The position numbers and the translations under genes were made by a program. From positions 41,148,429 to 41,212,428 of the forward strand of contig CM067372.1 of NCBI GenBank assembly GCA_034401795.1: 64,000 bases of DNA. The letters run 5' to 3'. Below, in pieces: positions 20,111-35,770 of the stretch. The stretch is from Chaetoderma sp. LZ-2023a. Taxonomy: Eukaryota; Mollusca; Caudofoveata; Chaetodermatida; Chaetodermatidae. Numbering within the stretch: position 1 is the first letter of the stretch; each line of letters opens with the position of its first letter. The notes beneath the pieces were generated by a model. The model saw only the letters and a program-made list of their open reading frames with translations, did no database searches and was not told where the DNA came from.

Positions 20111-20284
20111 ACATGACACTTTATAATGATGAAGACACAGTGTCCGGTTATAACATTGTACACTTGATATTATGTTGCGATATATATATTCATAAAACAT
20201 AGAAAACAAACCTTTATCATGGGAGTAGACTGATCCCTGATTACTAAGCAATAATCCCTGCTGATGTTGGATAAGTAGGAATGG

Positions 20285-20632
20285 GTATTTTATGTGGATG
20301 AAACTAAGCGGAAGTTTAGAAGCAAGATAAAAGAGCATGTTAGAGTCATGTGTGATAACCAAGAGACACCAGTAGCCAGACACTTAAACATAGCTAATCA
20401 CTCCAAATGTCATGTCTCCTACCACAATACAGGTCCTATGCATAGATCCCATAGTGTAGTAGGCCTATTAGAAGCCGAGATTACACAATCAGATAGATTG
20501 TACAATAAGTTGTACGATCTGTCGCATGCAGATTGCACAAGCGTTCACACGATACATGTTTTAGCCATCCGATGGCACACAACAGACATCTGTGCTACCT
20601 GTATACGTGGTATCTTAACGATCGCTTCTTGA
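20285..20632 (+). pseudogene. Penelope-like element: second GIY-YIG endonuclease remnant
   Basis: In frame from about 20285 it reads FYVDETKRKFRSKIKEH followed by PVARHLNIANHSKCH. This matches the second half of the GIY-YIG domain seen at 12973-13326 (YVGETKREF..VKEH..HFNLPNH). The first half of the motif is missing, and the conserved glycine after YV is Asp. The remaining about 60 residues have no recognisable match and end at a stop at 20630-20632. It is a 5'-truncated, probably dead copy of a different Penelope-like subfamily, given the low identity. Confidence 0.6.
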
Positions 20633-21627
20633 CCAAAAAGAAGGAACACAGAGAGACTCCTGAACGTTTGTACAGGGTGCACATCGAAACTGGGGCAGGG
20701 CAGGCTGTGGTATGGTGGGGTGGGGCTAATGAGGGAATGGATGAAAGGGGATTCGCGCATACACTGCCACTTGGATGATTACATCCACATAGAATCGAGG
20801 ATGGGAGCGCATGATGATGATGATGTCTAGAAATATGCTAGACAGATGGCTGATGCTGTGTCATCTGAGGACCCTGGCCTATGCCTCTCTTGCTCCGCAA
20901 TAATGCCATGTCATGAAAGAAATAATTTAGCGATCGCAACTGCAGCCACAACTATTTGAGATGTGTGTTGGAAAAAAACCTGATCGTTGTGGTGTCATCA
21001 ATTTTTGTTGAAGAAACAATCTTCATTCGGATTTGTGCAACGCTCTGACATCCATGTACTATGCTGACAGTAAAGCAGACAAACGAACAGACAAGAATAG
21101 TCATGCCGAAACTACATGGTGCCACAAATAGTTGTATGGGATTAACATGTAGAGAAATCAGACACAGTCTGTTTAAGTTAAACATTATTTAAAAATTAGA
21201 GAACCTTTTTGAAAATCATATTCATATTGATGCATCTTGGTTCATTACACTCCGAAGAGCAATTGAATTAATTTGTGAATAACTTACTGGAAACTGAGGA
21301 ATACGAATCTAGATACTTATTCCCATTTAACTAAGAACTGGGAACTGGAATGAGTGGCTAACCTTGCGGAATTGATGAACAATAATGCAAATTAAAACGC
21401 TGACCAAAGAAAATATGAAACATAGGCTAATTCCAGTGATGGCACCAGGCTATGTTTGTTAGGGTGGGGGGCGGGGGAGTGAGAGTGCAACTCTGTTACA
21501 TAGGGTTGGTGCAATGTTGATGGAGAGGGTAGCACTCTTACAAAAGGTGGGGGTATGTTGTGGTCCAGGGGTTCTTCCCTGGGAAATTGTAAAAATTAGA
21601 TGCTCTATTAAGCCACTTTCCTTATTA
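20633..21627. other. non-coding DNA with G-rich patches
   Basis: No supported gene. A (GAT)n run lies near 20810-20825. A G-rich patch (GGGTGGGGGGCGGGGGAG) is near 21460. The first part may be 3' sequence of the Penelope-like remnant. Confidence 0.45.
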
Positions 21628-21889
21628 GTCCCCTACCGGTAAAACCGGGGGGACTATAGGTTTGCACTCTGTCTGTCCGTCTGTCGCAGTTGGTTTTCCG
21701 CACTTTTTTCCGCTGTCCAAGGTATTCAACTGAGAATTGGTTTATTGCTTTGTTATGAGAAGTTACAGACCAAGTTCGAGTTTCAGGCGTATGCATCAAT
21801 TTTTGATGGAGTTATGCCCCCTTTCGGCTTTCCGCACTTTTTCCGCACTCCTTCAAGTAATTTAAGTGAAAATCGGTGCATCGCTTTAG
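21628..21889 (+). repeat. satellite-like repeat, left flank of the interrupted array
   Basis: The head TAGTCCCCTACCGGTAAAAC then ACCGGGGGGACTATAGG and CTGTCTGTCCGTCTGTC is followed by about one and a half units of 'tttccgcacttttt..gagttatgccccctttcg..aagttcgagtttcagg'. The same units resume at 36385, so the DNA between looks like an insertion. Confidence 0.7.
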
Positions 21890-22079
21890 TACACGTAGTC
21901 TCTGCCAGAGTTGCATCAGCATGATGGGACCACCCATAGTGGCTTCCATCTACGTTGACAACGCTCACCTGGGAGGAGGCTAAAGGGATTAGCATGTGAA
22001 CCACGGCAGACTCTGGCATGTTCACATGTTACGCAGAGAATCTGGTGCTGAGCAGGAGTCTCCAGCAGACAACCATGGC

Positions 22080-22286
22080 CTACCCTTTCCACCCCATAGA
22101 AGTGGCAGACAGACTTGATCTCTTCACGTGGGTGAAAGCGGTCGTAAATGTTTGCAAGGGGTCGACCCAAGGATTGTACTGGGGGTCATCTGGGAAGTGG
22201 GCCCACTTGGCATCCAATATCATGGCAGTCTCAGCGCCCTGTGCCACTGATGTAGACGCCAGCACGACCAGTATGATGAGAATCAT
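22080..22286 (-). CDS. small secreted or membrane protein, 68 codons, possibly truncated
   Basis: Function unknown. The N-terminus is a clean signal peptide: hydrophobic ILIILVVLAS then small residues TSVAQGA, a likely signal-peptidase site. It is followed by a Trp/Asp/Pro-rich stretch (KWAHFPDDPQYNPWVDPL). The start is supported by an element promoter motif: GTTTAAC at 22308-22302 and TATATA at 22296-22291, just before GCC-ATG. The frame stops at 22080. A neighbouring frame stays open to about 21916 with a Cys/His-rich sequence, so the native protein may have been longer and broken by a frameshift. It is the leftmost recognisable gene of the element. Confidence 0.5.
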   Translation of the reverse strand: MILIILVVLASTSVAQGAETAMILDAKWAHFPDDPQYNPWVDPLQTFTTAFTHVKRSSLSATSMGWKG

Positions 22287-22288
22287 GG

Positions 22289-23260
22289 CTATATATGAAG
22301 AGTTAAACTGAACAGAGTGAACCCCTCGAAAAATGTTTGTGCCAGATCGAGCCCTGTTCCATCTGGATCGATAGTGATCTTCAACCCCGCAGGGGCTAGC
22401 TGCTTCACTCTGCCGCCGGCTAAGAAACGTAGCTCTAGGACTATATGAGTCATTTCCGGGCTAGTGAGTCCGACTCGCTGAAGCAGTTTAACAGCACCCT
22501 TGACTTTGGAGACATGTGACACACCATCTACCCGTAGGGTGCCCTCCTGGAGGTTAACAGCTTCTTCTGGTCCATCGAATGGACGACACAGCAGGAGCTT
22601 TCCACCTGTAACCCCAATCTGGTGACCCACCCTCGTCAGGGAGACACATTCACCTATGTAGGTGAGGAAGGATGATCCCCGAGTGTAGAGCTTTCGAACT
22701 GTCCCATCCTTTTTCACAACAGTGGAGAGGGGAGTAACCTCTATGTCAATAACTGCGGGAGGCCTATATAGGGGCAACCATGTTTGCCATTCACCTCCAG
22801 GTCCAGCGAGGTACCACACTTCATTCTTCTCAAATATGAACTGCAGGTTTTTTGCCATGGTCAATAGCAGGCCATCATGGGTCATCGGCGGTGCACCGCT
22901 CGAATAGGGTTTGACCAGATGAAAGCTGAGGTAATTATTTAGGGTGTTGATGTCTCCCACCTCTGTATCTGAGAGGTCAATCAATGGCTCGAGGATGTAC
23001 TTCCTCTTCGGAAAATCATACCGAAACACGATCTTGTGGCCATCTATGTTGCGACCCATGCGCTCCTTCGACACATCCTTGAGGTCTGTGAGCAGCTCCA
23101 CCCCATCACCACCAATGGGGTGGAGGGAGAATGCCTTTGAGTTTGCTTCGTACTGTAGGGCGAATGACTTGCCATCGCTCTGTTCTACCTTGGCAGCATC
23201 AACTGCGTACACATCTGCCAGGTCAGCAAGACAAGTCGAGTGAGCAAATATGGGTTCCAT
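22289..23260 (-). CDS. conserved-looking 323-residue element protein, function unknown
   Basis: This is the largest intact ORF of the element. It appears mixed alpha/beta to beta-rich, with no signal peptide or membrane segment. Landmarks are NIDGHKIVFRYDFPKRKY (about 71-88), GGEWQTWLPLYRPPAVIDIE (about 155-175) and a C-terminal ITIDPDGTGLDLAQ segment. Its length fits the minor capsid or penton range of Polintons, but I see no diagnostic motif and do not claim it. The start at 23260 is fixed by the shared GTTTAAAC-N7-TATA promoter with the divergent gene at 23299. It ends 2 bp before the ATG of the 68-codon gene downstream, a very tight arrangement. No lesions are seen. Confidence 0.7.
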   Translation of the reverse strand: MEPIFAHSTCLADLADVYAVDAAKVEQSDGKSFALQYEANSKAFSLHPIGGDGVELLTDLKDVSKERMGRNIDGHKIVFRYDFPKRKYILEPLIDLSDTEVGDINTLNNYLSFHLVKPYSSGAPPMTHDGLLLTMAKNLQFIFEKNEVWYLAGPGGEWQTWLPLYRPPAVIDIEVTPLSTVVKKDGTVRKLYTRGSSFLTYIGECVSLTRVGHQIGVTGGKLLLCRPFDGPEEAVNLQEGTLRVDGVSHVSKVKGAVKLLQRVGLTSPEMTHIVLELRFLAGGRVKQLAPAGLKITIDPDGTGLDLAQTFFEGFTLFSLTLHI

Positions 23261-23298
23261 AGCATGCTATAGGAGGGGTTTAAACAGGAGGTATAACC
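23261..23298. promoter_or_regulatory. shared bidirectional promoter with palindromic GTTTAAAC
   Basis: The 38-bp gap between divergent start codons holds GTTTAAAC (23278-23285). On each side TATA begins exactly 14 nt from the G: TATA at 23292-23295 on +, and TATA (23271-23268) on minus. AGGAGG flanks the palindrome on both sides of the + strand. The arrangement gives both genes the same GTTTAA-N8-TATA signal. Confidence 0.65.
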
Positions 23299-23676
23299 AT
23301 GCCGATTGTCCGACTGCTGCTCTCCGGTGGTGAGAACATAATCTCACCCTCTCTAGAGGGGAGACGGGTGGTACAGTACCATGTAGAATGGGTCCTCTTC
23401 GAGGTGCCCCAGCAGGGCACAACATACATACACGCCGATGTGCTACATCAACCTCCGGCCAGTGCGCACAGCAGTTCACTGGTAGAAGTCGGCCGGGACG
23501 TGATAGAGTATCTCCCAGGCGCCAACAGCAACCTGTGGAAAGCTATCAATCCTAGCCTGTTCACACCTGTAAATCACCTGTTTGACAGCCCCTCCATTAA
23601 CATATATGCCAGCACGGATGGGATATCAGATGCCCATTTAGAGTTTACACTCTTATTACTCATTGACCTGACATGA
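23299..23676 (+). CDS. 125-residue element protein, beta-rich, unknown function
   Basis: The ORF is intact, with alternating hydrophobic residues suggesting beta strands (VVQYHVEWVLFEV; SINIYASTDG; LEFTLLLLIDL). The hydrophobic C-terminus is too strand-like for a sure membrane anchor. A compact all-beta fold such as a single jelly roll is possible but unproven. It starts 21 nt after the shared GTTTAAAC motif. Its TGA overlaps the next ATG as ATGA at 23673-23676, suggesting co-transcription and coupled translation, unusual for a gene resident in an animal genome. No homologue is recognised. Confidence 0.65.
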   Translation: MPIVRLLLSGGENIISPSLEGRRVVQYHVEWVLFEVPQQGTTYIHADVLHQPPASAHSSSLVEVGRDVIEYLPGANSNLWKAINPSLFTPVNHLFDSPSINIYASTDGISDAHLEFTLLLLIDLT

Positions 23677-24313
23677 TATCATACCAGGAATATCTGACCT
23701 TTGCCGAGATGATGAAGAGCCTGCTACAGTGTTACCCCTTCATGACCCCTGCACAGATAAAGGCCTTAAACGAACAGATGCTCACACTGCAACAAGTAGG
23801 AGAGCGACTACAGCGGGAGAGCTGGTATCAACAGAACGCAAGCCTTGCAAGGAGGCGAAGGAACAGTGAAGGTTCCCGATACTGGCAGGCCCTCCTGGAA
23901 GAGAGTAAGCGGGACGATGCCTTAACATACGACGATGAGCCAGATGTAGCGGAGACAGTGGACGATGCAGCGGAGACCACAGACGAGGATGAGCCAGAGA
24001 GTAAGCAGGACGATGAGCCAGATGTCTTCACATACGACGATGAGCCAGGTGTCTTCACAGATGAGGATGAGCCAGATGTCATACAGAGGGAAGAGGAGAT
24101 GGTGCAGAAGTGTAAGACCAGCGGCGGACCTACTATCTTGGTCATAAGGTGAAAGTCCAGGTGTCACGTCTCAGAAAGCTACTGGCACCCGATATAGTGC
24201 TGGATGACCTCTGTCTAAGAGACGTCTTTCTCAAAACCAACAAGCTGGCACGGTTCACCAGGCTCTCCAAAATGTACCCTTCTAGGACTCATGAGCAGGT
24301 GATGCAGGTTTAA
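23673..24313 (+). pseudogene. acidic-repeat protein, broken by one frameshift near 24.12 kb
   Basis: The first frame (23673-24152) gives a helical N-terminus (MMKSLLQCYPFMTPAQIKAL) and a basic stretch (LARRRRNSEGSRYW). A long acidic region follows, built from repeated DDEPDV/DEDEPDV and AETxDDAAETTDEDE units (about residues 85-145). Near 24120 the coding sense passes to another frame: YYLGHKVKVQVSRLRKLL, then LAPDIVLDDLCLRDVFLKTN, ending at a TAA at 24311-24313. I infer one 1-nt indel and an original length of about 213 codons. The terminal TAA sits inside the next gene's GTTTAA motif. The acidic AET-DE repeat recurs in the minus-strand gene at 28318-29191. Function unknown; a DNA- or core-associated role would be speculation. 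Confidence 0.55.
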
Positions 24314-24327
24314 TCTCCAGGTATACT
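24308..24327 (+). promoter_or_regulatory. element promoter motif GTTTAA-N8-TATA
   Basis: GTTTAA at 24308-24313 and TATA at 24322-24325, with ATG at 24328. The GTTTAA contains the stop codon of the previous gene. Confidence 0.6.
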
Positions 24328-25375
24328 ATGGCAAAATCAGAGTGGTGGAAGCAACCAGAAATATACCCCACCCTGACGGCTGACGAGGGCGGTACCATCC
24401 ACGGCTGGTGTCTCCAGCAGATAGATACCATCAGACAGAATCTCGGCCATGAGGCAGAAAAGTACAGCAGAACGTGCAGGCGATATAAGACAGCCTACAA
24501 CGTCCTCGCACGTACAACCACTGCTGCGGGTGTGATTGGAGCCAGTGCTGGGGTGGCAGCTGTGGCCACTCTCGCTACAGGGGTGGGGGCCATCGTCGCC
24601 ATCCCACTGGGTGGTGTGACACTAGCCGCCACTGTCTTGGCCACGGGCTTGTGGGTGAGGCAGCGGCAGATCACAAGGAGGCTGGAGAAGCATGCTAAGT
24701 ATGTGTCACTGGCACAGAGTATGCTACAGGCTATCGACAAGCCTCCCTGATACAAACACCTTTGACCCACAGCTCAACAGTCATAGCGTCTCAGCGGCCA
24801 GCGGACTACAGAGAGAGTTCCGCGCTCACCTAGACTATCAGTGGCATGGTGGTGACAACAGCAGTCATGGGGTTATGTACGGTGACCTGAGACATGACTA
24901 CTCAGGATTCCCCTATCGAACCCCCCGATGAGTAGGCCGTCGGAAGACAGCGACATTCTTGTTTGATCCAGACTCTGACCCTGGAGCATTGGTGCAAAAT
25001 AAGCACATCACTGGCTTGCGGCAGGACTATCCAGATGTGTGGAAGTACTTTGTCCCACACACCACCTCAGGCCTCACACCAACAGGGATCGTTCGGATCA
25101 ACCAGTCCCTGGAAGCACTGTGCTACTGCCTCCTTACGGCACAGACCCAGCTGTGGCATTCCATAGATGCTGTCAGCAGAGCAGAGGTCCAGGCCATGTT
25201 CATCAGTCTCGTTGAGGCTATGATCATCGTGGCAGATACCAGTAGTCTTATTGCTAAGTTCCAGCAGGGGTTGCAGAAGTCCCGTCACAAACTTGACTGC
25301 TATTTCGCCACACCTACGGTTGATTCCAAGAAACATGATCGTGAACATCGAGGACCTCCATGTCAGTGGTTATAA
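24328..25375 (+). pseudogene. membrane protein with TM hairpin plus helical domain, split by a frameshift and an in-frame TGA
   Basis: The first 140 codons are intact. A Trp-rich start (SEWWKQPEIYP) leads to a helical region, then about 50 residues of Gly/Ala/Val (ATTAAGVIGASAGVAAVATL onward), a likely two-segment membrane hairpin (about 72-122), and a basic RQRQITRRLEKHAKY tail. The TGA at 24748-24750 is followed in another frame by coding-like sequence (NTFDPQLNSHSVSAASGLQR; DLRHDYSGFPYRTPR). One in-frame TGA (24929-24931) then precedes a longer domain (FDPDSDPGALVQNKHITGL; CYCLLTAQTQLWHSIDAV; FISLVEAMIIVADTSSLIAK) ending at 25375. No start codon or promoter motif precedes the second part, so I read one gene of about 345 codons with two lesions. 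Two separate genes are possible. Function unknown, perhaps virion membrane. Confidence 0.5.
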
Positions 25376-25619
25376 CAACATGATGGTCGAGGGGAGTTCC
25401 CCCAGTGCCCACTTCGGATTCAACACTGCCATCAACGCACCTACGCGTAGTATGAGCCATACAGTCGTTCCGACCCTGACACTGCAGCCAGTTGACACGG
25501 CAGCTCCAGGCGCCCCGGCACTGCAGCCAGTCGACACGACACCGCTTCCCATGGTAGCTCTATGTGTGGTGTCAGGCCTAGCTATCATGGCACTCGGGAT
25601 CAGCCTACTCCGCCGCTAG
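25338..25619 (+). CDS. 93-residue tail-anchored membrane protein
   Basis: Starting at the ATG in 'aaacATGatcg', the protein has a polar N-terminal part (NIEDLHVSGYNNMMVEG) and two near-identical LQPVDT blocks (LQPVDTAAPGAPALQPVDTT). The C-terminus is a membrane span, MVALCVVSGLAIMALGISLL, with an RR tail. This topology puts the bulk of the protein in the cytosol or virion interior. It overlaps the preceding frame by 38 bp. A longer open frame extends upstream to 25251, but it lies in the previous gene's coding sequence and I reject that start. No family is recognised. Confidence 0.6.
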   Translation: MVNIEDLHVSGYNNMMVEGSSPSAHFGFNTAINAPTRSMSHTVVPTLTLQPVDTAAPGAPALQPVDTTPLPMVALCVVSGLAIMALGISLLRR

Positions 25620-25635
25620 CAAATCAACTATAAGA

Positions 25636-25818
25636 CTATCCTGACTCTACAGTAGCAGTGGGGACCACGGTGAGACACTGAACCAGCTTGGCATGCCCTA
25701 CAGCCCCTATACCTGCTGCCAACATGCACATCCAAGGGCTGGAGGGTTCGGCAGCACATCCATTTTCCAGCTTGTAGTATCGCAGAGCCTTGTTCAGCTC
25801 TGAGTCCAGTGAAGCCAT
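25636..25818 (-). CDS. 60-residue Cys-containing small protein
   Basis: The start ACCGCC-ATG-G is an excellent Kozak context. The N-terminus is helical and charged (ASLDSELNKALRYYKLENG), followed by a hydrophobic stretch (WMCMLAAGIGAVGHAKLVQC) that may be a short membrane segment. It lies 6 nt after and in the same frame as the 91-codon gene upstream (26100-25825), separated only by a TAG. It could be the second half of that protein after a nonsense change or readthrough. The Kozak start favours an independent cistron. Function unknown. Confidence 0.5.
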   Translation of the reverse strand: MASLDSELNKALRYYKLENGCAAEPSSPWMCMLAAGIGAVGHAKLVQCLTVVPTATVESG

Positions 25819-25824
25819 GGCGGT

Positions 25825-26100
25825 CTACAACTGCTGGAACACATCTGACGGATACTCCCGATCCTTGTAGAAACCTTTAGCTCGCAGGAGCTGCTCGACG
25901 ATACTCCCGCCCATGATAAGGTATTCGGGGAGGCAGATCTGTCCATTGCCAAATCCTAGATAGAGCTTCACAGCTGTCAGCTCCTCTGTCAGCTCAGCAC
26001 CAGAGAGCTGAGCGAGCTCATCTGGTGTCTTCTGCTTGTAGTCCTTCAACTCCCTCTGGAAGACATCATAGTACTTCTCGCATAGCGTGACCCCGGACAT
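25825..26100 (-). CDS. 91-residue helical soluble protein
   Basis: An intact ORF with high charge and helical character: CEKYYDVFQRELKDYKQKTP, LAQLSGAELTEELTAVKLYL, and YLIMGGSIVEQLLRAKGFYK. No membrane segment. The ATG is preceded directly by TTAAAC, as at 26242 and 29190, but no full GTTTAA-N8-TATA is seen. It is divergent from the gene at 26242 across 141 bp. No homologue is recognised. Confidence 0.6.
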   Translation of the reverse strand: MSGVTLCEKYYDVFQRELKDYKQKTPDELAQLSGAELTEELTAVKLYLGFGNGQICLPEYLIMGGSIVEQLLRAKGFYKDREYPSDVFQQL

Positions 26101-26208
26101 GTTTAAGATGGCTCAATAGAGAGATGAATATTCCTGAGTACCAACCCGGCCACCTGGCAGTTGCAGACTGGGAAGATCTTATTAGCTCTCTCGACAGGGG
26201 ACGCAGAT

Positions 26209-26241
26209 GTTTGACCGCGTTGTATACTCAGTGCTTAAACA
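26209..26241 (+). promoter_or_regulatory. element promoter motif GTTTGA-N8-TATA plus CTTAAAC
   Basis: GTTTGA at 26209-26214, TATA at 26223-26226, then GCTTAAACA directly before the ATG at 26242. The 14-nt offset is the same as at other genes. The rest of the 141-bp divergent gap (26101-26208) shows nothing recognisable. Confidence 0.6.
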
Positions 26242-26643
26242 ATGACGTCAATGGTGCAGATCGTGAAGCAACTGCCTGAGAGCCAGGCGAGTCTTCAGAA
26301 GGTGGAGAACCTGCTGCGAACCAAGACACAGAAGTTACTGACCAAAGCAAAACCTCTGGCAGTCCATGTCGCCAGTAACGTGGTGGCGAATGTGGCCGTG
26401 GTGAAGATGACAAGGGGAAGTGAGGTTCTTCCTGCCACCACTGCGGCTGTCCTTGCTACAGTGGTGAGTGTGGTGGACGGGCACTGTCTCGGAATAACTC
26501 ACCCCATCCCAAAGATCGCCCTCAGTGGTGCCTCCTACACTGTTGCTGCCAAGATCATGGTTGAACGTGTTACACTAATGGAGGCCACGGTTCTATGGCT
26601 AGAAGCGAGTGCAATGGCTGAGATCATCGTCGCCTACATTTAA
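26242..26643 (+). CDS. 133-residue hydrophobic protein
   Basis: The intact ORF opens with an amphipathic, coiled-coil-like N-terminus (LPESQASLQKVENLLRTKTQ, about 11-30). A basic stretch (KLLTKAKP) and several small-residue hydrophobic segments follow (VHVASNVVANVAVV; TTAAVLATVVSVV; SYTVAAKIMVERV; and a C-terminal AMAEIIVAYI). Two to four membrane segments are plausible, though each is short. It could equally be a helical virion protein. The stop TAA forms part of the next gene's ATTTAA-N8-AATA motif. Function unknown. Confidence 0.6.
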   Translation: MTSMVQIVKQLPESQASLQKVENLLRTKTQKLLTKAKPLAVHVASNVVANVAVVKMTRGSEVLPATTAAVLATVVSVVDGHCLGITHPIPKIALSGASYTVAAKIMVERVTLMEATVLWLEASAMAEIIVAYI

Positions 26644-26662
26644 CGCCTCTGAATAGTGAGAG

Positions 26663-26872
26663 ATGGATCACGAGACCCCTGCAGCATATGAGGCATGGCG
26701 TGCCGGAGGGCAGTTTGTAGCCCATAGTCGAGCACACGTACTGAGGCTCGCCAATGCCTGGGAATGGTGGACCACCGGCAGAGAGGGCCAGTACCCTGAG
26801 CACTGCTACCTATTCACTTGGCCGACTGTGTGGTCCTACTATGCCCAACTATTTCACTGGGGGTATGACTAG
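26663..26872 (+). CDS. 69-residue Trp/Tyr-rich small protein
   Basis: It is small and strongly aromatic: AWEWWTTGREGQYPEHCYLF then WPTVWSYYAQLFHWGYD at the C-terminus. It starts 20 nt after the previous stop. A variant promoter motif (ATTTAA at 26638-26643, AATA at 26652-26655) keeps the 14-nt offset. No family is recognised, and the short length makes it moderately uncertain. Confidence 0.5.
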   Translation: MDHETPAAYEAWRAGGQFVAHSRAHVLRLANAWEWWTTGREGQYPEHCYLFTWPTVWSYYAQLFHWGYD

Positions 26873-26875
26873 TAG

Positions 26876-26903
26876 GTTTAAGCCGTCTGTATATATATTA
26901 TAT
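26876..26903 (+). promoter_or_regulatory. element promoter motif GTTTAA-N8-TATA with extended TATATA tract
   Basis: GTTTAA at 26876-26881 and TATATATATTATAT from 26890 run up to the ATG at 26904. The preceding gene's stop lies 2 bp before the motif. Confidence 0.6.
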
Positions 26904-27358
26904 ATGACTCTGTCACTCACAGACCTAGAAAGGAGGGCTAGGCGATCTTGCTCACTTGGGCGAGGCATGCCTCGGTTCAGAGGACACTGTTGCCCCTATC
27001 TCCTTCCTAGACTTCGATGAGAAGGGAGACCTGCGGGAGATCCAAGGTACCATCACAGCCCGAGATCTCATTGGGAACACTGATACGGTAGGACAATCGG
27101 TCATTAACAAGGGCGACGATGTGAGATATGCTCGGAGTCGATGAGGCTGGAGCCATCAAGTCCTATGCACAGGATCTGGTTAAGGATCTCCTGAAACCAC
27201 GGAGCTCATTCCGACAGGATGGAGAGAATCTCAAGATAGGCACCCTCGGCCTGAGCCATATCACTGTTGACAGCCAAACAGGTGCTACCGCCAGCCTCCG
27301 GCTACCAGAGGTGATGAAGTCAGGCTTCTTTGGTTTACCGTTTAAGACCACAAGATAG
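26904..27358 (+). pseudogene. about 150-residue element protein, broken by two frameshifts
   Basis: The ATG at 26904 follows a clear promoter motif and reads MTLSLTDLERRARR. Around 26950 the coding sense moves to the next frame (EDTVAPISFLDFDEKGDLRE; GTITARDLIGNTDTVGQSVI). Near 27128-27144 it moves again (GAIKSYAQDLVKDLLKPRSS; GTLGLSHITVDSQTGATASL), ending with PFKTTR at 27358. The two downstream frames have no promoter motif of their own, and the three parts abut without gaps. I therefore infer one gene with two indels; separate small genes are the alternative. Beta-rich, unknown function. The next gene's promoter motif lies in its last codons. Confidence 0.5.
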
Positions 27359-27360
27359 CC

Positions 27361-27636
27361 ATGGCTTCCCGTGCATGTATCATACAGATACTGGATGTAC
27401 TAGACACTGTGGGTGCTGACACAGGCCCTCTACACTATCTTCTGAGCTGCTGCTGGGATTTCATACTTGATGCCTCCATCGCATCCTTCGTATCCGCCAG
27501 AGGTGCAGGATTCCCCGCTCTGCAGGCGAAAGAGCTGGTGCAGGAAGTACTGCCATTTAGTCTCCCAAATATAGACGAGGCTACCGCCGACCAGGTGCTA
27601 CCCATCCTCTGCACGCATGTCTGTACCGTTCGATAG
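27361..27636 (+). CDS. 91-residue helical Cys-rich protein
   Basis: An intact ORF starting GCC-ATG-GC, 21 nt after GTTTAA (27340-27345) with GATA at the usual TATA position. It is helical and hydrophobic with several cysteines: CIIQILDVLDTVGADTGPLH, YLLSCCWDFILDASIASFV, and a C-terminal LPILCTHVCTV. It overlaps the ATPase start (27617) by 20 bp, so the two are probably expressed together. No homologue is recognised. Confidence 0.6.
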   Translation: MASRACIIQILDVLDTVGADTGPLHYLLSCCWDFILDASIASFVSARGAGFPALQAKELVQEVLPFSLPNIDEATADQVLPILCTHVCTVR

Positions 27637-28275
27637 TAGGCCGGCTGATGCTGACCAGGTGGTGCTGATCATTGCCCCGTCAGGACACAGGAAAAACATC
27701 TTGCTGCGGGCTCTCCTGGCCGAACATCTACACTCTCAATACATCCTTCTGGTGTCTGACTCCGCCGCTGAGGCGGTTGGTTGACAGTAATGATCAATGG
27801 TACAATGGCCCAATCACCAAGACACAGAACCTGCAAGCACTGATGGAGAAGCTGCTGGCAGCCCGACTGACAGAACCACTTGTTCTAGTTATCGATGACC
27901 CTGCAATGGAACAGTCACCTACCTCAGCAACATCACCAGGCACATCCGGCACACAAAGATAACTGTCGTCATCCTCTTTCAGAAGTACACCCACGAGATC
28001 TCACCAGACATCTGCCACAATGGCGGGTTGCTATACTTCAGCTCCAAGTGTGGGTGTGCCCTGCTCGAGACCATATGCGACAGCCTAACCCTCAAGGAGA
28101 CCACAGGGGACTTTATCGCAGGTGTACAGAGGGCAGCTGAGCTGTACCGCTTCATCTTCAGCAACAAGGAGACAGGTGAGCTGTCACATTCAAGCCATCT
28201 CTGGAAAAGGCACAGACCTTCACCTGCAAGCTGAATCCAGCCAGGAAACTAGCCCGCTCTAAGCGTCATCGCTGA
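27617..28275 (+). pseudogene. FtsK/A32-like genome-packaging ATPase, broken
   Basis: In Polintons this P-loop ATPase pumps DNA into the capsid. In the first frame, residues 15-23 read VVLIIAPSG, a Walker A lead-in. The loop itself reads GHRKN, so the GK-[ST] core is lost except Lys26; an adjacent frame reads DTGKT at the same place, which suggests paired nearby indels. After LLVSDSAAEAVG a stop intervenes. The sense continues in a second frame with Walker B (LVLVIDDPAME, near 27880-27910), then returns to the first frame (NITRHIRHTKITVVILFQKY; GGLLYFSSKCGCALLE; IFSNKETGEL). A further shift near 28190 gives a basic C-terminus ending at 28275. At least three frameshifts, so non-functional. Confidence 0.75.
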
Positions 28276-28317
28276 CAGACTGAGCAGAGACTGCGACGTC
28301 TCCACTGCAACTTTTTT

Positions 28318-29191
28318 TCATTCATCTGCTACTTCATCTGCTCTCTCCGCTACTTCGTCCGCGGTCTCCGCTGCATGAGGACCTTCATCAGCGGTCTCTG
28401 CTGCTACTTCGGCAGTTTTGTCAAGTCCGTACTGTCGCCGAAACTCTACCCACTGGTCCGTGTCTAGGACTCCTCTTATGGAACTTCTCATGGAAGATCC
28501 ACTTTGTCCATGCGCGACGAGCATCTGATTTGCAAGCGGATTTGATGAGGTAGTCCTGGTAGTTATCTGGGAATTTCAGAAATGCTGGCAGATTACTGGC
28601 CAATCTCCTGCGACCTCTTTCATTGAAGATGTGCTCAGCCTCCTTGCGGCCAACAGTGAACCCCTCCTGAGTACCTTCTGCATGACTGGTGTCATGGGTC
28701 TCCGCTACAGTGGTACTGACCTCCTCCCTGAAGTAGTTATTTGCTCCAGACTGGAGGCTATCCAGCATATCTCGCTCTTCCTGGCTATGGAGGCTAAATA
28801 CGGCAGCCCACTTCCCGACCGTTAGTAGATCTTTGGGGTCGACCCTCGCCCATTGGAGAGCTAGGATAACAGGACTGTTGGTTTGGGCCACAGGAGGTAG
28901 GTCGAGTGTCCTGCCCTGGTTGCTGTCAAACTTCCGGTAGAGTATCCGAGTCAGGAGTTCTTTTGTACTATGAGCTGGCGCTCCTTCCTCTATGGCGGCC
29001 AGTATCTCCGCATCAGATGGAGGTGTGACCTTGGCTCGCTCGTGGATAATGTTGATGTCACGAAGCAGTCCTCGGACCCTGTCATAGTGGGACAGTGCAC
29101 GCCTTGTCCTGCTACCTATAGACAATCTGCTGGATAACTTTACCAAACATGGCAGCCGTTTAACCCCTCTATATACCCAGACCTTAAACAT
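28318..29191 (-). pseudogene. about 290-residue element protein with acidic C-terminal repeats, one frameshift
   Basis: From the ATG at 29191 the first frame reads FKVWVYRGVKRLPCL, then a helical body (SDAEILAAIEEGAPAHSTKE; LTVGKWAAVFSLHSQEERDM) and NLPAFLKFPDNYQDYLIKSA. Near 28490-28520 the sense passes into another frame: GVLDTDQWVEFRRQYGLDKT, then an AAETADE/AERADEVADE acidic repeat ending at 28318. A longer upstream open frame to 29386 lies over the + strand gene and is rejected. The repeat is alike at the DNA level to that in the gene at 23673. The start codon overlaps the ATG of the + strand gene in a CATG. Unknown function. Confidence 0.5.
29158..29189 (+). promoter_or_regulatory. element promoter motif GTTTAA-N8-TATA plus CTTAAAC
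   Basis: GTTTAA at 29158-29163, TATA at 29172-29175 within TATATA, and CTTAAAC abutting the ATG at 29190. The motif lies inside the N-terminal codons of the divergent minus-strand gene. Confidence 0.6.
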
Positions 29192-29405
29192 GCTGCAGTA
29201 TGTGCAACATCCAGATGGGGCCATTGAAGCTGCGACATCACACCGCACTGATCCTCGGAAGGACTGCCTGATGGTCATTCGACCTAGTATAAACGATGAG
29301 AACCTGTTGTCCGCTGCTGGGAAGTACATTGACTTTGCAATCTCGGCACAGATCCACGAGATCAAGAGCATGACACTCGAGTTCAAGCTTCAGAGCACAA
29401 CATAA
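29190..29405 (+). CDS. 71-residue element protein, or N-terminal part of the next gene
   Basis: The start is fixed by the promoter motif. It reads QYVQHPDGAIEAATSHRTDP, then a helical or strand segment AGKYIDFAISAQIHEIKSM, and stops with TAA at 29403-29405. The next ORF begins three bases later in the same frame, so the two may have been one 270-codon gene interrupted by a nonsense change, or two adjacent cistrons. Nonsense changes are common in other genes of this copy, which makes the first option credible. Function unknown. Confidence 0.5.
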   Translation: MLQYVQHPDGAIEAATSHRTDPRKDCLMVIRPSINDENLLSAAGKYIDFAISAQIHEIKSMTLEFKLQSTT

Positions 29406-29408
29406 CAG

Positions 29409-29999
29409 ATGGTAGAGGACCCGCAGGTCCTGAACTGGCGGGAGATCGTGCAGAGCAACAGCACCGTGGACACCAGCTATGTGAACGATGAGTACCGAGT
29501 CCTAGGTCCGCTGGCTCGTGGCCCAACCTTCTATGCGAAGGGAAAGGGGTACTACGCTGTGGGGTGCAATGAGGGGTTCACGGAATTCGAACTATGGACA
29601 GGTGTCGAGAAGCCTGTGGCAGTTCCACTCTTAACCCTCCTCGGGAACACACACATGAATCCGGCTGCCATGCAGGATAGGCTGTTCCTCCGGGTGTACA
29701 ATGAGCAGCTCGCAGATGCGACGATGAATGCTCCAAGACTTCATGTCTGGCCTGACGAGAATGACCAGGAGCTGAAGCAAACTGGTTCCAAACAGCAGAT
29801 TATGCATGTGCAGCGAGAACACCAGCAGGTCCAAGCCACAGCTAACCAACGGGTAGAGCTGACATTGCATCATGGTGCATTGGACTGTGTCGCTGTTGCG
29901 GTCCTGGTTCAGAAGGGAGGAGCCATCCAGCAGGTGGATAAGCTAGACGACTTCAAGCTTGTGGTTGCTGGGACCAATCTTCTTGGTGAGGTACGTTAG
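29409..29999 (+). CDS. 196-residue beta-rich element protein, unknown function
   Basis: An intact ORF directly after an in-frame TAA. It is aromatic and beta-rich (RVLGPLARGPTFYAKGKGYY; GFTEFELWTGVEKPVAVPLL). A charged Gln-rich stretch follows (QREHQQVQATANQRVELTLH), and the end is hydrophobic (DFKLVVAGTNLLGEV). No membrane span or catalytic motif. Size and composition would suit a structural protein such as a jelly roll, but nothing proves it. It lies between the acidic-repeat gene (minus) and the integrase block. A fold prediction would be decisive. Confidence 0.6.
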   Translation: MVEDPQVLNWREIVQSNSTVDTSYVNDEYRVLGPLARGPTFYAKGKGYYAVGCNEGFTEFELWTGVEKPVAVPLLTLLGNTHMNPAAMQDRLFLRVYNEQLADATMNAPRLHVWPDENDQELKQTGSKQQIMHVQREHQQVQATANQRVELTLHHGALDCVAVAVLVQKGGAIQQVDKLDDFKLVVAGTNLLGEVR

Positions 30000-30059
30000 C
30001 TGGCTGATTGTTAACTCTACAGACAGAAAAAAAGTCATATGCACTTCTGCGCCTAACCA

Positions 30060-30323
30060 GTGGAAGCAACGACCACGAGTCGGCACTCGTACAACCTGGT
30101 CAAGTCCCTTAACTTCCGAGGGTTGGTCGATAAACTACTATTCAGTGAGGATCCAACAGAGATTAGACGCCAGTGTATGGAGGTGTTTGAGGAGGTCTTC
30201 AGTGATGGTCAAATGAATGACGGCCGTCTGTTCGTCTGTTTAGAGTTCACCCAGGCCGTGCATGACAGGACGGGAGTAGATGTCAGTGATGAAATCCGGG
30301 AGTTTATCAACCGTCTTTCTTGA
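30060..30323 (+). CDS. 87-codon helical protein upstream of the integrase, start codon uncertain
   Basis: The open frame reads RHSYNLVKSLNFRGLVDKLL, then ECMEVF-like helices (RRQCMEVFEEVFSDGQMNDG) and VDVSDEIREFINRLS at the end. Its first possible start is GTG at 30060 just after an in-frame TAA; the first ATG is at 30177. The native ATG may be mutated. It overlaps the integrase frame by about 44 bp. The sequence 29999-30060 has no promoter motif. Small helical proteins at this position are not something I can assign. Confidence 0.45.
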   Translation: MEATTTSRHSYNLVKSLNFRGLVDKLLFSEDPTEIRRQCMEVFEEVFSDGQMNDGRLFVCLEFTQAVHDRTGVDVSDEIREFINRLS

Positions 30324-30899
30324 GGAACTCTACTATCAGCCTGGTGAATATTACCGTGAGCGCCCTCAACTACTCGAGGCTGCACGTCGCAAGGGCCACA
30401 ACTTCACATTGGAGACAGTTAGCCAGTGGCTCAGCCACCAGACGATGTGGCAGATATACAGACCTCGTCCAGGGCACATCAGGCATGCCCATTTCGAGGA
30501 AACTGTCCCAAACAGAGTTCAGCAGGCAGATGTTCTATTACTTCCACATGACTCGGTTGGTCGTAAGACCTACAAGTATGTCCTCACCATCGTCGATGTC
30601 GCCAGTAGGTATAAGGCGGCAGTACTGCTCACAGACAAGTCAGCTAGCCAGGTGGCCCATAGCATTCCAGGGTGTCTACGAGGCTTCGAAAAATCCCCTC
30701 CAGTGGCCGGAATTATTGCAATTGGATGAATGAGGGTAAGGAGTTCAGAGGGGAGACTGCAGCCCTCATGCGGAAACATGGTGTGGCAGTTAGGCGAGGC
30801 GAGGTAGGGCATCAGCATGCCCAGGCTATCATTGAGCGGTGGAATCGGACACTGGCAGAGAGACTGTTCCCACACCAATACACCCAGGAAATGGCCTAG
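30280..30899 (+). pseudogene. retroviral-type (rve) DDE integrase of the Polinton, broken
   Basis: The integrase joins element DNA to the host chromosome. The first frame holds the N-terminal region (EYYRERPQLLEAARRKGHNF) and the start of the catalytic core: QQADVLLLPHDS, with the first catalytic Asp, then YKYVLTIVDVASRYKAAVLL. Near 30655 the sense shifts to a second frame (WPELLQLDE, second Asp). At 30726-30733 a tandem ATGA-ATGA duplication shifts it to a third frame (GKEFRGETAALMRKHG; AIIERWNRTLAERL, catalytic Glu). The second Asp and Glu are separated by about 34 residues, as expected for D,D-35-E. A TAG at 30897 truncates the protein, and no chromodomain-like C-terminus is seen. The gene is convergent with PolB. 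Dead as it stands. Confidence 0.85.
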
Positions 30900-30996
30900 C
30901 CGAGTGAACATTCTAGAGTATGGGTGAGAGGGCTGCGGAGTGCCTAGATGACCACTTGTTGTAGAAGAGCTTCAGCTAGTCCCTGAAGCCACACAG

Positions 30997-33900
30997 CTAC
31001 CACCCTAGTGTGCTAACATGATACTCGATGAGCTCGGTATGGATCCCTTCTGGCAGCACATGGCACTTATCATAGTAAGCGGGGAGTCCGAATTTTTCCT
31101 GCGCATATGTCACCATACCCTGGTTGCCCATGCGTTTGCCTCGGTTTTTAGCTCTGTCTACCCCGCCATGTAGGGCACTGTAGAACCTCTGCCAAGAGAC
31201 TTCATTCTGCCGCTTTGACATTCCCTTAGCCGAGCACTTACTTGCAGCTGCGCTCTCCATGTAGTAGCATTTAGAGCAGAGAGTGATGCTACGAGAGCCT
31301 TCGAACTCGAGCTTGAACAGTCCCGAAGTCCGTCCAGACCATTTGTCCCAAGCTAGCCAGTCCTGCTTATTAGCCTGTTACTCTGCTTGCATCTCAGGGC
31401 GAATGACGTCGTCAAGGTTGGAGCCTGCTATAGTGATATACGCAGAGTCAGTGTTCATCTGCAGGTACTCAAAGCCGTCATGAGCTATGTAGCGATTGAG
31501 GAAGTCATAGTAGAACTCCAGCATTCGTAGCTTCGCGAGCTCATAAACGGCTATCCCCACCTGGAAGGGCCTTCAAATTCTGATTCTCGGCTTGCGACCC
31601 TGGAGCTCGTATGACTCACTGATCTCCTCGAGATCTTCGAACCATGCACTACATAGGGCCTTATCTATCACGCGTTCATCCTTCATGAAGCTGGTGTTGC
31701 TATGATGTTCGAGGGCCTCGATAAGCTTCTCGTAGGCACTGTTGCCGAGGAGTTTGAAGAGATCTGCCAAGAGTGCTTTGCTCTTATCTACATCTCCCGA
31801 GCGGTGAGCCTCCATAACATTCTCCATGAACCACTCGAATGGGCGCTTGGCCTCATGGTCTATGGTGCGGTATACAGCAGTGATCTCCAGGCCATGGGTT
31901 ATATACCACTTGAGGGTCGGGGCGTACAGCAGCCGCTTCTTGCCAGAGAGGGCACCGACCAGCTTCTGGGTGGTGGGCCGCTTCCTCCCTGTTCGCCCTA
32001 GATATGCCAGCATCTCAGATGAGATTGCCTCTACCGGGATCTCGTGGTTGTAGAAGAGAGGAAGCATTTCCTCGAACTTTGCCCACAGAGCCTTGGGGAC
32101 CTCTATATCCACCTCAGCAAACCCAAACCAGCTGTCTGCTAGGAGAGCCTCCTTAAAGCTAGCTATCCCACTGGCACCGGACCAATCGCGCACTTTCTCC
32201 TTACCACATGACATCTCTTTGGCCATCGTTGACAGGTACAGAGCATTTGTGCCATAGCCGAGTAGACGTTGGCAGACACGCTCACTCTGGCGGATTTGAG
32301 TCACACCGGCCTCATGGTATCTGGTGAACATGATGCTGGGACCGCCAACAACAGCACCCTTCAGCATCTCGTAGGCTTCCTTGTCCGGTGAATAGAGGCT
32401 AACATCCGGCATGTGCTGAGCGGTTCCACATAGGAGATACTGCAGTGACACACCTGGGAGAGACACCGCGTATTTGAGGATGTCTGTTTCTCATTCTGTG
32501 TAGAACTCCCGCATCCGTTCTAGGGCTTCGATGAATGGACTGACGTCCAGGTTGTTGTAGTATCGCAGCCAGTCGGCGAATGTCCGCATTCCATGCTCAC
32601 TGAATGTTTGGTTACACTGTTCCCACTCTGTTCGCGTCAAGAGGTAGCCACCCTTGAGCTTAGATGTTCATCCTGAGCAGTCAGGAAGCCTTGGATAGTT
32701 GAGCTTCTCATGTGTGTCAAAGCACCCGTAAGCTTTGACCCATACCTCGTATGAGACTCATGGGCCGAGGTAGTTCAGCACATCGAGAAACCATAGTTCA
32801 GGTGTAATGAGGAACATCGTCTGACTAGCCTTCTTGGCGACTTTCACTGTACCTGTACTGTCAGTCAGCTCATCGACAAAGTACTTCTTGATGAGGTTCA
32901 GGTCATACCGCCCAGAGTTGAACCCCAGTACAGGCACTTGGTCACACCACTCGTTGATCAGTCGCTGCTGTCGCTTTGGGAGCTTGTCCAGGTTTGTCGG
33001 TATGTACTGTACCCTAACCCTTGTCCGGAATAGAGATGCTCGCCGTTGGATCTCCAGCATGAACTCTCTGATCAATTCATTGGGGTCAGGATTGCAGAGG
33101 TGAGTGGGCTCACTCGTGGCGCCCTCTAAGGAGCAGCCAACTGACACAGAGATAGGTATGTGAGTACTCTCGATCGTGAGAGTCTCCGTAGGATGAGTCT
33201 TGATACCATCTAGGAGTGCTTAGAAGTCGTAAACTATGAAGTGTGGGTATGGGACAGTCCGAACTCGTTTAGAGACGCTTGGGCAGCATTTTATACAGCA
33301 CTCGCACTGTACCATAAGCGTGCATCCAGAGGCTCTCAGCTTCTCCTCTCTCAGGACTGTCTTGCTGTATCTTTGTTCGGCATCCTCACCTAGCTGGTGT
33401 TGTGGACACCCGTGCCAGTGACAGCCATGGAACTGGCAAACGGTGTTGGTGGTCGGATCATAACCATCTACGGGAGCGCCCTCGATCCAACGCTCGCCAC
33501 CGTGCCCACACTCTACATGTTGTATGTGCATGCCTCTGTTTCTCGACTCATACTCGATCCACCGAGTAGCCACTGAACTGGATGGTTGGGGCAGATAGAA
33601 GGCTTTATCATGCGCAGACTGTGGTGCCTAAACCTTCTTGCCAGGACACACAATTTTTGTTTTTCTGCCTGTACAGTGATCAGCATGGCATTGAAGATTG
33701 CATGCCTGTGTAAACTTCTGCTGGCAGTGACTGCAGACGAGTATGTGCCAGCTTGGAGATGTTCTTGATGTAGAAGGTGCGGTGGTCCCAGACTCCGATG
33801 GTCATGGTATTATGGTAGTGAGCCACTTGCCTGATCATGTGCCAGGTGCCCTCTTCGGTTGGTTCATACACGCAAATCTCAATCTTGGCGAAGAACCCTA

Positions 33901-34912
33901 CCTTATCCAGCTGATCCAACGCGGTCTTGCGGACATCATGTACTGTCTTGCCGTAGAACTGTGTGGCAAGCTCTCGTGCAGGAGCTGTACTTCTATCAGC
34001 TCTCGCTCCTCGGTGGACTGCTAGACATCTCCAGAGACACATGTTGTCCCTGTATGTGTCGAGGGCAGTCATACTCTTCTTCTGGCATAGCCAGTCTGGG
34101 AGGTGGCCTGTGCCAAGCAGAGGTTGGTGGTCGATGACAGCCCTGACCTCAACGTTGATTGATTGAACGAAAGTGCACTTGGTGTTGGGTCGATCGATAT
34201 TTTCTGTATCGAGGCGGGCTTGCTCTCTTGCTGCCACCCAGTCCTGAGCTGCTCCTATCGTGTTGAGCCACGGGCTCCCTAGAGCATTCTTGTGGAAGAG
34301 CATCACCCTACCATCTTCGATGTGACGGATGCGATAGGTATGGGTGTAGCGGAGGTAGAAGGCATTCTAGACAGTCTGCTGGCTCTTTTGCATGATCTGG
34401 CCTGTGAGGTCTCCTTCTAGACCTCTGAAGAATGTCCAGCATATTGACCGGCATCCTCTATCCTCTGTCTCCCTTTCGCCGAAACGCTGGTCGAGAATGT
34501 GTTCACCTTCTTGCCTCATGCTCCGGGCTAAGGGTTCAGACCTCGGCCCCCTTATGCTCCAGGCTGGGCTAAGACCTCGGTATTGCTTAACGATCCTGCG
34601 TTTGAGGGTTAAGCACTCCAGTGGATGGGCCTCCATCCGCCTCGCTACAGTCTTGGCTCGCAAGCTAGCAGTCACCTCCTCGTCCAACTGACGATGCTCA
34701 CGTATCGGCTGTGCTTTCTTGTGGGGATTCCAAGGATCCTCTTTGGTAAGCGCTGGAAACCTTCCCATATTCATTGCTTGGGAGAGTCGCTTCTGCCACT
34801 CCTCAGCACGGATCTGGTCGATCATCTGGAGCAGGTCGACTTTCTTGGCCTTAAAGTAGCCTCTAAGGCCGAATTGCTTTGCAATAGCGTGAATCTGTGC
34901 AACAGTACTCAT
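30997..34912 (-). pseudogene. Polinton-type protein-primed DNA polymerase B, extensively inactivated
   Basis: About 1300 codons read from 34912 downwards. An N-terminal SAP-like helix pair (IHAIAKQFGLRGYFKAKKVD) is followed by an OTU-like DNMCLWRCLAVHRG segment, a CSHCQQKFTQACNLQCHADHC-like zinc finger and an FHGCHWHGCP motif. The 3'-5' exonuclease comes next: Exo I VYDF then a stop, Exo II FNSGRYDLNL, Exo III YYNNLDVSPF. The palm follows: motif A GYGTNALYL, B KLLGNSAYEK, C QMNTDSAY, then LAWDKWSGRTSGLFKLEFEG. In-frame stops lie at 34367, 33628, 33220, 32758, 32668, 32491, 31573 and 31378, and there is a frameshift near 33740. Three palm motifs carry substitutions at invariant residues. Its upstream reads TTTAAAG..CTATACACC-ATG. 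Confidence 0.9.
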
Positions 34913-35415
34913 GGTGTATAGCCCTGTGGATGCCTGTCTTTAAATGTGCGTTCAGTCCCTATTATGTGTGGTGATCAGTACCTGTGAATGCCTGTCTGGG
35001 CGTTCAGACCTATTATGTGTGGTGCTGGCGATCAGTACCTGTGGGTGGATGCCTGTCTCTAAATGGGCGGGCAGAACCTATTATGTGTGGCGATCAGTAC
35101 CTGTGGGTGGATGCCTGTCTGATCGTTCAGACCCTATTATGGGTGGTGTATATCCCTGTGGATGTCTGTCTCTAAATGGGTGTTCAGACCCTATTATGTG
35201 TGGCGATCAGTACCGTGGGTGGTGTATAACCCTGTGGATGCCTGTCTGGGTGTTCAGACCCTATTGTGTGTGGTGATCACTACCTGTAGGTGGTGTATAT
35301 CCCTGTCTCTAAATGGCCGTTCAGACCCTATTATGTGTGGTGCTGGCGATCAGTACTGGGGGTGTATATCCCTGTGGGTGTCTGTCTCTAAATGGGCGGT
35401 GTGCATGCATGCCCA
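34913..35415. repeat. subterminal tandem array carrying PolB upstream sequence
   Basis: Seven to eight irregular copies, about 60-75 bp each, share AGACCCTATTATGTGTGG, GATCAGTACCTGTGGGTGG, GGTGTATATCCCTGTGGATG and CCTGTCTCTAAATGGGCG. Copies differ by presence or absence of the GGTGTATA and CTAAATGGGCG blocks. On the minus strand the first copy is the sequence directly upstream of the PolB ATG. No coding capacity. Confidence 0.75.
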
Positions 35416-35654
35416 CTGGATAGGATAGTACGCGTGCGTGTATAAAGCCCTATGAGAGAGGTATGGCTAAGTCCGTAAGAACGCGTAGCACGCATGCGCA
35501 CGTGTCAGATCCACATGTCAGTATTGTGAGAGTGTATGCTTATATTGTACCGAGAAATCACTTCATTCTCGTCGTTCTTGACACCGATTAGGACCGGAAT
35601 GAAGCGAGAATTTCAAAACTGTTTACCATTTTCAAATCGGACCAGAAATGGCCG
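35416..35654. other. CpG-rich putative terminal sequence, then a dispersed repeat
   Basis: 35425-35515 is unusually CpG-rich (GTACGCGTGCGTGTATAAAG; AACGCGTAGCACGCATGCGC) and may be the true right end of the element. From about 35560 there is a repeat (GAATGAAGCG, GTTTACCATTTTCAAATCGG, AGAAATGGCCGAGTTA). It reappears inverted near 44095-44155. Confidence 0.5.
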
Positions 35655-35770
35655 AGTTAGCCACAAATGCTGATAGTGAGATTTGAACCTGTGAGTTTAA
35701 GTTTGCTAATAAACACAAAACAAGGATCTCCCGCATTAACTACCTGGGCCATGTATGCATTAGTAATTAT
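35655..35770 (-). repeat. tRNA-like SINE head, reverse orientation
   Basis: On the minus strand an A-box-like TGGCCCAGGTAGTTAATGCG is followed about 45 nt later by a B-box-like GGTTCAAATCTC. The spacing is long for a tRNA, and no acceptor stem pairs cleanly, so it is read as a tRNA-derived repeat, not a gene. Confidence 0.4.

What the first reader, a model, noticed from the sequence alone, without database searches (positions are those of the whole stretch)
22284..29192. Constant-spacing motif GTTT(A/G)A-N8-(T/G)ATA placed directly before element ORFs: a possible element-specific promoter code
Seen directly at seven ORFs: 23260(-), 23299(+), 24328(+), 26242(+), 26904(+), 27361(+, GATA variant) and 29190(+). 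In each, the T (or G) of TATA begins exactly 14 nt after the first G of GTTTRA. 22286(-) has GTTTAAC with TATATA at 13 nt, and 26663(+) has ATTTAA-N8-AATA at 14 nt. A 10-base specification should occur by chance only about once per megabase of random sequence. The TATA ends 2-17 nt before the ATG, so a normal TATA box with initiation 25-30 nt downstream would start transcription inside the gene. Either transcripts are leaderless or this is a different, virus-type late or initiator signal. It also acts as a start-codon predictor: internal frames without it look like frameshifted continuations.
Basis: seen in the sequence. Interest (0 to 1): 0.9.

Follow-up and report, generated by a model that had tools for sequence, protein, structure and literature searches.

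The report
Two-part gene-start motif in Polintons
A fixed two-part DNA signal sits just before several genes of a virus-like mobile element with very many copies in this genome, and its closeness to the start codons suggests a virus-type promoter rather than an ordinary TATA box.

Summary
GTTTRA-N8-KATA occurs 9 times in the window (0.83 expected; 0 of 100 shuffles reach 9), all inside a GC-rich Polinton-like element. Seven are the listed ORF starts; two are reverse halves of exact palindromes. The element is a large family: 3125 palindromes genome-wide against 59 for the reversed pattern. In 40 copies picked by protein match, the divergent units before the 323-aa and 125-aa genes are exact in 33 and 32. 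In the 37 rows without indels, motif cells change in 11 of 592 and spacer cells in 62 of 444, so the motif bases are constrained. At five genes protein homology reaches the first codon, 2-15 nt after KATA, so a TATA box 25-30 nt upstream of the start site cannot make these mRNAs. [quoted passage not shown] There is no RNA evidence; the polymerase is unknown. Against: the reverse halves have no clear gene, decayed relatives keep 3 of 10 units, and the PolB start lacks the hexamer in 2 of 2 copies. No DNA of these genes from another species was reached.

The parts
22290..22308 (-). S1: GTTTAA with TATATA at 13 nt, before ATG 22286(-); in some copies TATA at 15 nt
   Evidence: sequence, (5 of 20 loci aligned there)
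23268..23285 (-). S2: GTTTAAAC-N6-TATA unit, 7 nt before ATG 23260 of the 323-aa gene
   Evidence: exact in 33 of 40 motif-blind copies
23278..23295 (+). S3: divergent unit sharing GTTTAAAC with S2, 3 nt before ATG 23299 (125 aa)
   Evidence: exact in 32 of 40 motif-blind copies
24308..24325 (+). S4: unit 2 nt before ATG 24328 (140 aa, hydrophobic stretch)
   Evidence: exact in 10 of 20 loci; kept in divergent L149
26101..26118 (+). S5: GTTTAA-N8-AATA, 5 nt before ATG 26124 (51 aa); read the other way its TTAAAC abuts ATG 26100(-)
26209..26240 (.). S6, palindrome A: GTTTGA-N8-TATA-N8-TTAAAC, then A and ATG 26242(+)
   Evidence: it lies inside the 26124 ORF (and reading)
26638..26655 (+). S7: weak variant ATTTAA-N8-AATA before ATG 26663
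   Evidence: sequence
26876..26893 (+). S8: unit 10 nt before ATG 26904; the TATA-ATG distance varies among copies
   Evidence: 12 of 20 loci exact
27340..27357 (+). S9: GATA variant 3 nt before ATG 27361, overlapping the end of the preceding ORF
   Evidence: (8 of 20 loci exact)
29158..29189 (.). S10, palindrome B: GTTTAA-N8-TATA-N8-TTAAAC, then ATG 29190(+)
22000..34920 (.). Polinton-like element: block with the motif to about 30 kb, integrase piece 30280-30729, broken PolB-like ORFs 30997-34912(-)
   Evidence: GC 0.50-0.54 here against 0.33-0.42 in most of the window (0.49-0.52 at 44-48 kb); integrase PF00665 E 6.1e-5; 17 integrase relatives; PolB assignment is my reading of motifs

Best explanation
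GTTTRA-N8-(T/G/A)ATA is the core promoter of a class of genes, probably the morphogenesis (late) genes, of a Polinton-like element. GTTTRA is an upstream core element and TATA, 14 nt downstream and 2-15 nt before the ATG, is the initiator at or beside which transcription starts, giving very short leaders. Shown: the motif, its fixed spacing, its place at real start codons of five genes, and constraint on the specified bases but not on the spacer at the one junction tested blind. Inferred: that it is a promoter, that initiation is at TATA, and that the gene class is late. Unknown: the polymerase and factor.
For: Excess and single spacing in the element and in 20 further copies (126 matches there against 1.0 expected; 117 TATA at gap 8, whose total of 135 adds the window's 9). 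In 40 motif-blind copies the units are exact in 33 and 32; specified bases change in 11 of 592 cells, spacer bases in 62 of 444, Fisher p 2.8e-14 (37 of 40 rows used; copies are related, so p is only a guide). Over ten units in 20 loci, hexamer offsets 1-5 (0.024-0.041) and offsets 14-17 (0.030-0.077) are lower than the spacer (0.095-0.172), though some flank columns are as low and offset 0 is not (0.089). Protein homology to two copies 66.4% and 71.5% alike in DNA begins at residue 1 at 23260(-), 23299(+), 24328(+), 26242(+) and 27361(+), so the transcript must start upstream of those ATGs, within 15 nt of TATA or before it. At 23260/23299 two units sit back to back between divergent genes, which gives the unit a direction. 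The PolB ATG has no GTTTRA-N8-TATA in the window or in L159. [quoted passage not shown]
Against: No RNA data. The reverse halves of palindromes A and B have no clear gene start on the minus strand, and the long minus ORF at B has its only nearby in-frame ATG at 29191, upstream of that TATA. Palindromes A and B lie in plus-strand frames that read alike ((C/R)LTxLYTQxLN), so part of their conservation could be coding, although changes there are often non-synonymous (26 against 16 at A, 15 against 5 at B, rows mostly chosen for the palindrome). In the two divergent copies only 3 of 10 unit sites that I could read and had not selected for are exact (L150: S3, S11; L149: S4). Single sites are noisy: S4 hexamer 11/90, S8 TATA 11/64, S9 KATA 10/64. 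The PolB start has a TATA 4 nt before its ATG in the window (CATA in L159) without the hexamer, so TATA alone is not class-specific. Integrase starts could not be read. No polymerase or initiation factor was recognised among 20 ORF pieces scanned (one weak Rho_N match, E 0.0093).
Confidence: 0.6

Rival explanations
1. Host RNA polymerase II with an element- or host-encoded activator that binds GTTTRA (and the palindromes as a dimer); TATA is part of that site or a weak core element, and transcripts start upstream of the motif, so that the motif lies in the 5' leader.
For: Animal Polintons are not known to carry an RNA polymerase (recalled). Palindromes with a shared centre suit a dimeric factor.
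Against: By my reading several units abut or overlap the preceding gene (S8 follows its stop codons, S9 overlaps its last codons, S6 lies inside an ORF, and S4 would supply the stop of a frame-shifted one), leaving little room for separate start sites. The fixed 14-nt spacing to TATA is not needed for a plain activator. No AATAAA on either strand in 22000-34920, about 1.6-2 expected by scaling, so weak; ATTAAA is not depleted.
Confidence: 0.22
2. Virophage-like use of a helper: the motif is the late promoter of a co-infecting large DNA virus with its own RNA polymerase, as mavirus and CroV share TCTA. This is a special case of the best explanation that names the polymerase.
For: [quoted passage not shown] Mavirus-type elements carry the late promoter motif of their giant virus (PMC8547959, passages). 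An asfa-like virus of abalone is reported (search listing with starts of abstracts).
Against: No helper genome was examined (the one search for a viral late factor did not complete); the hexamer letters differ (GTTTRA against TATTT); the host species is not verified; no helper of an animal Polinton is known to me.
Confidence: 0.15
3. The motif is a by-product: recent common ancestry of very many copies plus coding constraint at the palindromes, with no regulatory role.
For: 18 of 20 fetched copies are 85-89% like the window, so much conservation is passive. Palindromes A and B encode a like peptide.
Against: Six gene junctions of the window carry exact units; spacer and motif columns differ about seven-fold in change rate at a non-coding junction.
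Confidence: 0.04

Closest known systems
[quoted passage not shown]
   Same: Two blocks, first bases 14 nt apart, a TATA block, short distance to the ATG (PMC5294985 and PMC7163114, passages read)
   Different: GTTTRA instead of TATTT; no polymerase found here; start sites not mapped; element of about 52% GC
Poxvirus intermediate/late promoters (core plus TAAAT initiator)
   Same: Core plus initiator close to the ATG; three genes here have TTAAAC(A)ATG, recalling TAAAT(G)
   Different: Sequence and spacing differ; no such polymerase shown
Yeast linear-plasmid upstream conserved sequence (ATNTGA)
   Same: Short element-specific signal before each ORF of a linear element (PMC6211774, passages)
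   Different: Those elements carry their own polymerase; signal 20-40 nt before the start codon
Mavirus/EMALE promoter motifs
   Same: Conserved motif upstream of ORFs in integrated Polinton relatives (PMC8547959, passages)
   Different: TCTA in AT-rich context for the mavirus type, protist hosts, known helper

Membership tests
Polinton/Maverick (adintovirus-like) element | rve integrase | tested here: met
   PF00665 E 6.1e-5, below the curated cut-off; 17 homologues, E 6e-24 to 6e-12
Polinton/Maverick (adintovirus-like) element | protein-primed family B DNA polymerase | tested here: inconclusive
   No Pfam hit for the 279-aa piece; motif reading by eye only; L121 and L122 pair the integrase with ORFs that read as PolB
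Polinton/Maverick (adintovirus-like) element | packaging ATPase and capsid proteins | tested here: inconclusive
   Pox_A32 E 0.058 on 27899-28231; no capsid match in the scans made; structure models unusable
Polinton/Maverick (adintovirus-like) element | terminal inverted repeats | tested here: not met
   No long inverted repeat at the ends in 19000-37000; this copy may be truncated, and ends of other copies were not tested
NCLDV (asfarvirus-type) late promoter | two blocks 14 nt apart, the second a TATA close to the start of genes | tested here: met
   against PMC5294985
NCLDV (asfarvirus-type) late promoter | transcription starts in the TATA block | not testable with these tools
   no RNA data
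NCLDV (asfarvirus-type) late promoter | read by a virus-encoded multisubunit RNA polymerase | tested here: inconclusive
   20 ORF pieces of the element scanned against Pfam, no RNA polymerase; a helper was not searched
Canonical Pol II TATA box | start site about 25-30 nt downstream and upstream of the ATG | tested here: not met
   KATA ends 2-15 nt before the ATGs, which homology supports as starts at 5 genes

The most novel reading that the evidence does not exclude
A Polinton family with very many copies in an animal genome carries a core-plus-initiator late promoter of giant-virus type on its capsid-side genes, meaning that these elements are, or recently were, virophage-like and are switched on by the polymerase of a co-infecting large DNA virus.
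Probability: 0.17. Interest if true: 0.92.

Novelty: new variant of a known kind. Interest (0 to 1): 0.62.

Why it matters
How animal Polintons express their genes is, as far as I know, open. A motif that marks gene starts gives a concrete, testable promoter, helps gene calls in decayed copies, and turns the question whether animal Polintons depend on a helper virus into one that 5'-end mapping can answer. Five library searches on promoters of Polintons or adintoviruses (listed 7 of 7, 4 of 4, 12 of 335, 12 of 51 and 10 of 49 papers) showed no such motif for animal Polintons in titles and abstract starts; only the passages cited were read.

Tried and rejected
Relatives in IMG/VR by PolB piece, 196-aa protein, A1, integrase, A2 and A3: none. 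A degenerate PolB pattern gave one record; its held 3447 bases show no PolB-like ORF by my reading, and the whole record has 0 motif matches. GTDB contigs: A1 none; A2 gave two contigs with integrase and PolB-like ORFs and no GTTTRA-N8-NATA; they hold no capsid-side genes that I recognise, so they do not test the motif. Palindrome scan of IMG/VR: 120 stretches, scan stopped at its limit; 91 of 120 hold only the palindrome's own two matches in the DNA kept, so they look like chance. Phage records with the PolB piece: none. Structure models had mean pLDDT 29.0 and 34.4 and were not searched. PDB sequence search: best E 0.5, and none. Poly-T and poly(A) signals: weak. Trans-splicing acceptor: rejected, no constant AG before the ATGs (reading).
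Full report
Observation. The exact pattern occurs nine times in the window, where 0.83 are expected, and all nine lie at 23268-29189 inside a block of 50-54% GC; most of the window has 33-42%. Seven are the listed ORF starts. The two others complete palindromes GTTTRA-N8-TATA-N8-TYAAAC at 26209-26240 and 29158-29189, the only exact ones in the window. The spacing is the striking point: 8 of 20 GTTTRA of the element have TATA exactly 8 nt further on, against 0 of 109 in the flanks. Relaxed forms stand at 22308(-), 26101(+) and 26638(+).

What carries it. The block is a degraded Polinton-like element: a piece with integrase similarity (PF00665, E 6.1e-5, below the cut-off; 17 homologues), minus-strand ORFs that I read as family B polymerase (no Pfam hit for the 279-aa piece), and a weak Pox_A32 ATPase piece. 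No terminal inverted repeat was found in 19000-37000. The genome is held: 2.44 Gb, 2753 contigs, no name. That it is a mollusc was not checked.

Copies. The palindrome occurs 3125 times genome-wide against 59 for the pattern read backwards. A protein search with the 323-aa protein gave 9543 first-look candidates; the 124 scored are 86-91% alike apart from the window itself. I fetched twenty 10-kb stretches placed by palindromes from the listed part. They hold 126 motif matches where 1.0 is expected; 117 TATA stand at gap 8, the next gaps being 6 (24), 10 (22), 17 (14) and 9 (11), the first two partly from TATATA. By my count the exact units at sites not used for the choice are: S2 in 9, S3 in 13, S4 in 10, S8 in 12 and S9 in 8 of 20 loci; could align 16, 16, 15, 14 and 16 of 20 loci there. 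An extra unit (S11, such as GTTTAAAGCTACTATATA) lies past palindrome B in 9 loci, and a like one in L150; it is missing from the window copy.

Constraint. Because copies are young, presence alone could be inheritance. So I took 40 of the 124 protein matches, from the top of the list, blind to the motif; the window and three rows whose match did not span 1-323 were skipped. Between the divergent genes 23260(-) and 23299(+) the S2 unit is exact in 33 of 40 and the S3 unit in 32 of 40. Three rows with indels were dropped before the column count: L160, which keeps S2, and L181 and L184, which keep neither unit. In the other 37 the 16 motif columns differ from the majority in 11 of 592 cells and the 12 spacer columns outside GTTTAAAC in 62 of 444. 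Adjacent coding columns change in 40 of 1073 and 8 of 259 cells, so the motif is at least as constrained as they are. Over ten units in the 20 loci, offsets 1-5 and 14-17 are lower than the spacer; S6 and S10 there are biased by selection, and single sites are noisy.

Start codons. Against L149 and L150 (66.4% and 71.5% alike over the aligned DNA) the proteins align from residue 1 at 23260(-) and 26242(+) in both, at 23299(+) in L150 only, at 24328(+) in L149 only, and at 27361(+) in both; the L149 starts of 24328 and 27361 read TTG. So these ATGs are likely real, and mRNAs must begin before them, that is at most 2-15 nt past KATA. A TATA box working 25-30 nt upstream of the start site is therefore excluded for full-length products.

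Geometry. Two arrangements occur: GTTTRA-N8-KATA-N2..10-ATG (S2, S3, S4, S8, S9), and GTTTRA-N8-TATA-N8-TTAAAC-N0..1-ATG at S6 and S10. The string TYAAAC(N)ATG occurs three times in 22000-34950, each at a gene start: 26100(-), 26242(+), 29190(+). Whether the reversed hexamer is a second core for the other strand or a downstream part of the plus promoter is open, because the minus direction of S6 has no gene start nearby and that of S10 has none in frame. Both palindromes also lie in plus frames reading (C/R)LTxLYTQxLN; changes there are often non-synonymous, which fits DNA-level constraint, but coding constraint is not excluded.

Mechanism. I commit to a core-plus-initiator promoter (0.6). The African swine fever virus late promoter is reported to have its two essential blocks with first bases 14 nt apart, the second at the start site (PMC5294985, passages), and late leaders of median 9 nt (PMC7163114, passages). 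The match is one of architecture, not of letters, and I compared few promoter types, so the coincidence should be discounted. The same geometry without a polymerase found in the element would suit a helper, as for mavirus and CroV (PMC8547959, passages), but nothing here shows a helper. The PolB start has no GTTTRA-N8-TATA in the window or in L159, though it has TATA (window) or CATA (L159) 4 nt before the ATG; two copies are few. The integrase start is not readable in the window.

Limits. All constraint data come from one genome and one recent family plus two decayed relatives, in which 3 of 10 unit sites that I could read and had not selected for are exact (L149: S2, S3, S4, S5, S9; L150: S2, S3, S5, S9, S11). 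The own-genome search with P0001 did not complete.

Noticed in passing
window 30057-30320 (+): 88-aa open stretch with a weak Bcl-2 family match (PF00452, E 0.0012, below cut-off); a like ORF is in L150 5750-6088.
   Followed up: no
L150 6567-8522: The divergent copy has the same motif-bearing block next to polymerase ORFs that read like those of L121, not like the window's: possible recombinant element.
   Followed up: partly
window 26208-26243 and 29157-29192: The palindromes read CLTALYTQCLNN and RLTPLYTQTLNM in a plus-strand frame.
   Followed up: partly
window 22000-34920: No AATAAA on either strand; 6 in 146 kb of copies where Markov models give 18-23, while ATTAAA (20) is not depleted. 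Weak, since copies are related.
   Followed up: partly
G000, e.g. C8:12392195-12392226: About 6 of 15 YTATAR palindromes look alike (GTTTAATCTGTCTTTATAGAGATACCTTAAAC and kin) and may be another repeat; the total of 15 is below the reversed control of 42.
   Followed up: no
L121, L122: Polinton-type contigs binned into an Oligoflexia and a Nitrososphaeraceae genome: probable contamination of those assemblies.
   Followed up: no
window 34940-35430: Imperfect repeats around CCTATTATGTGTGG at the right end of the element, also in L159.
   Followed up: no
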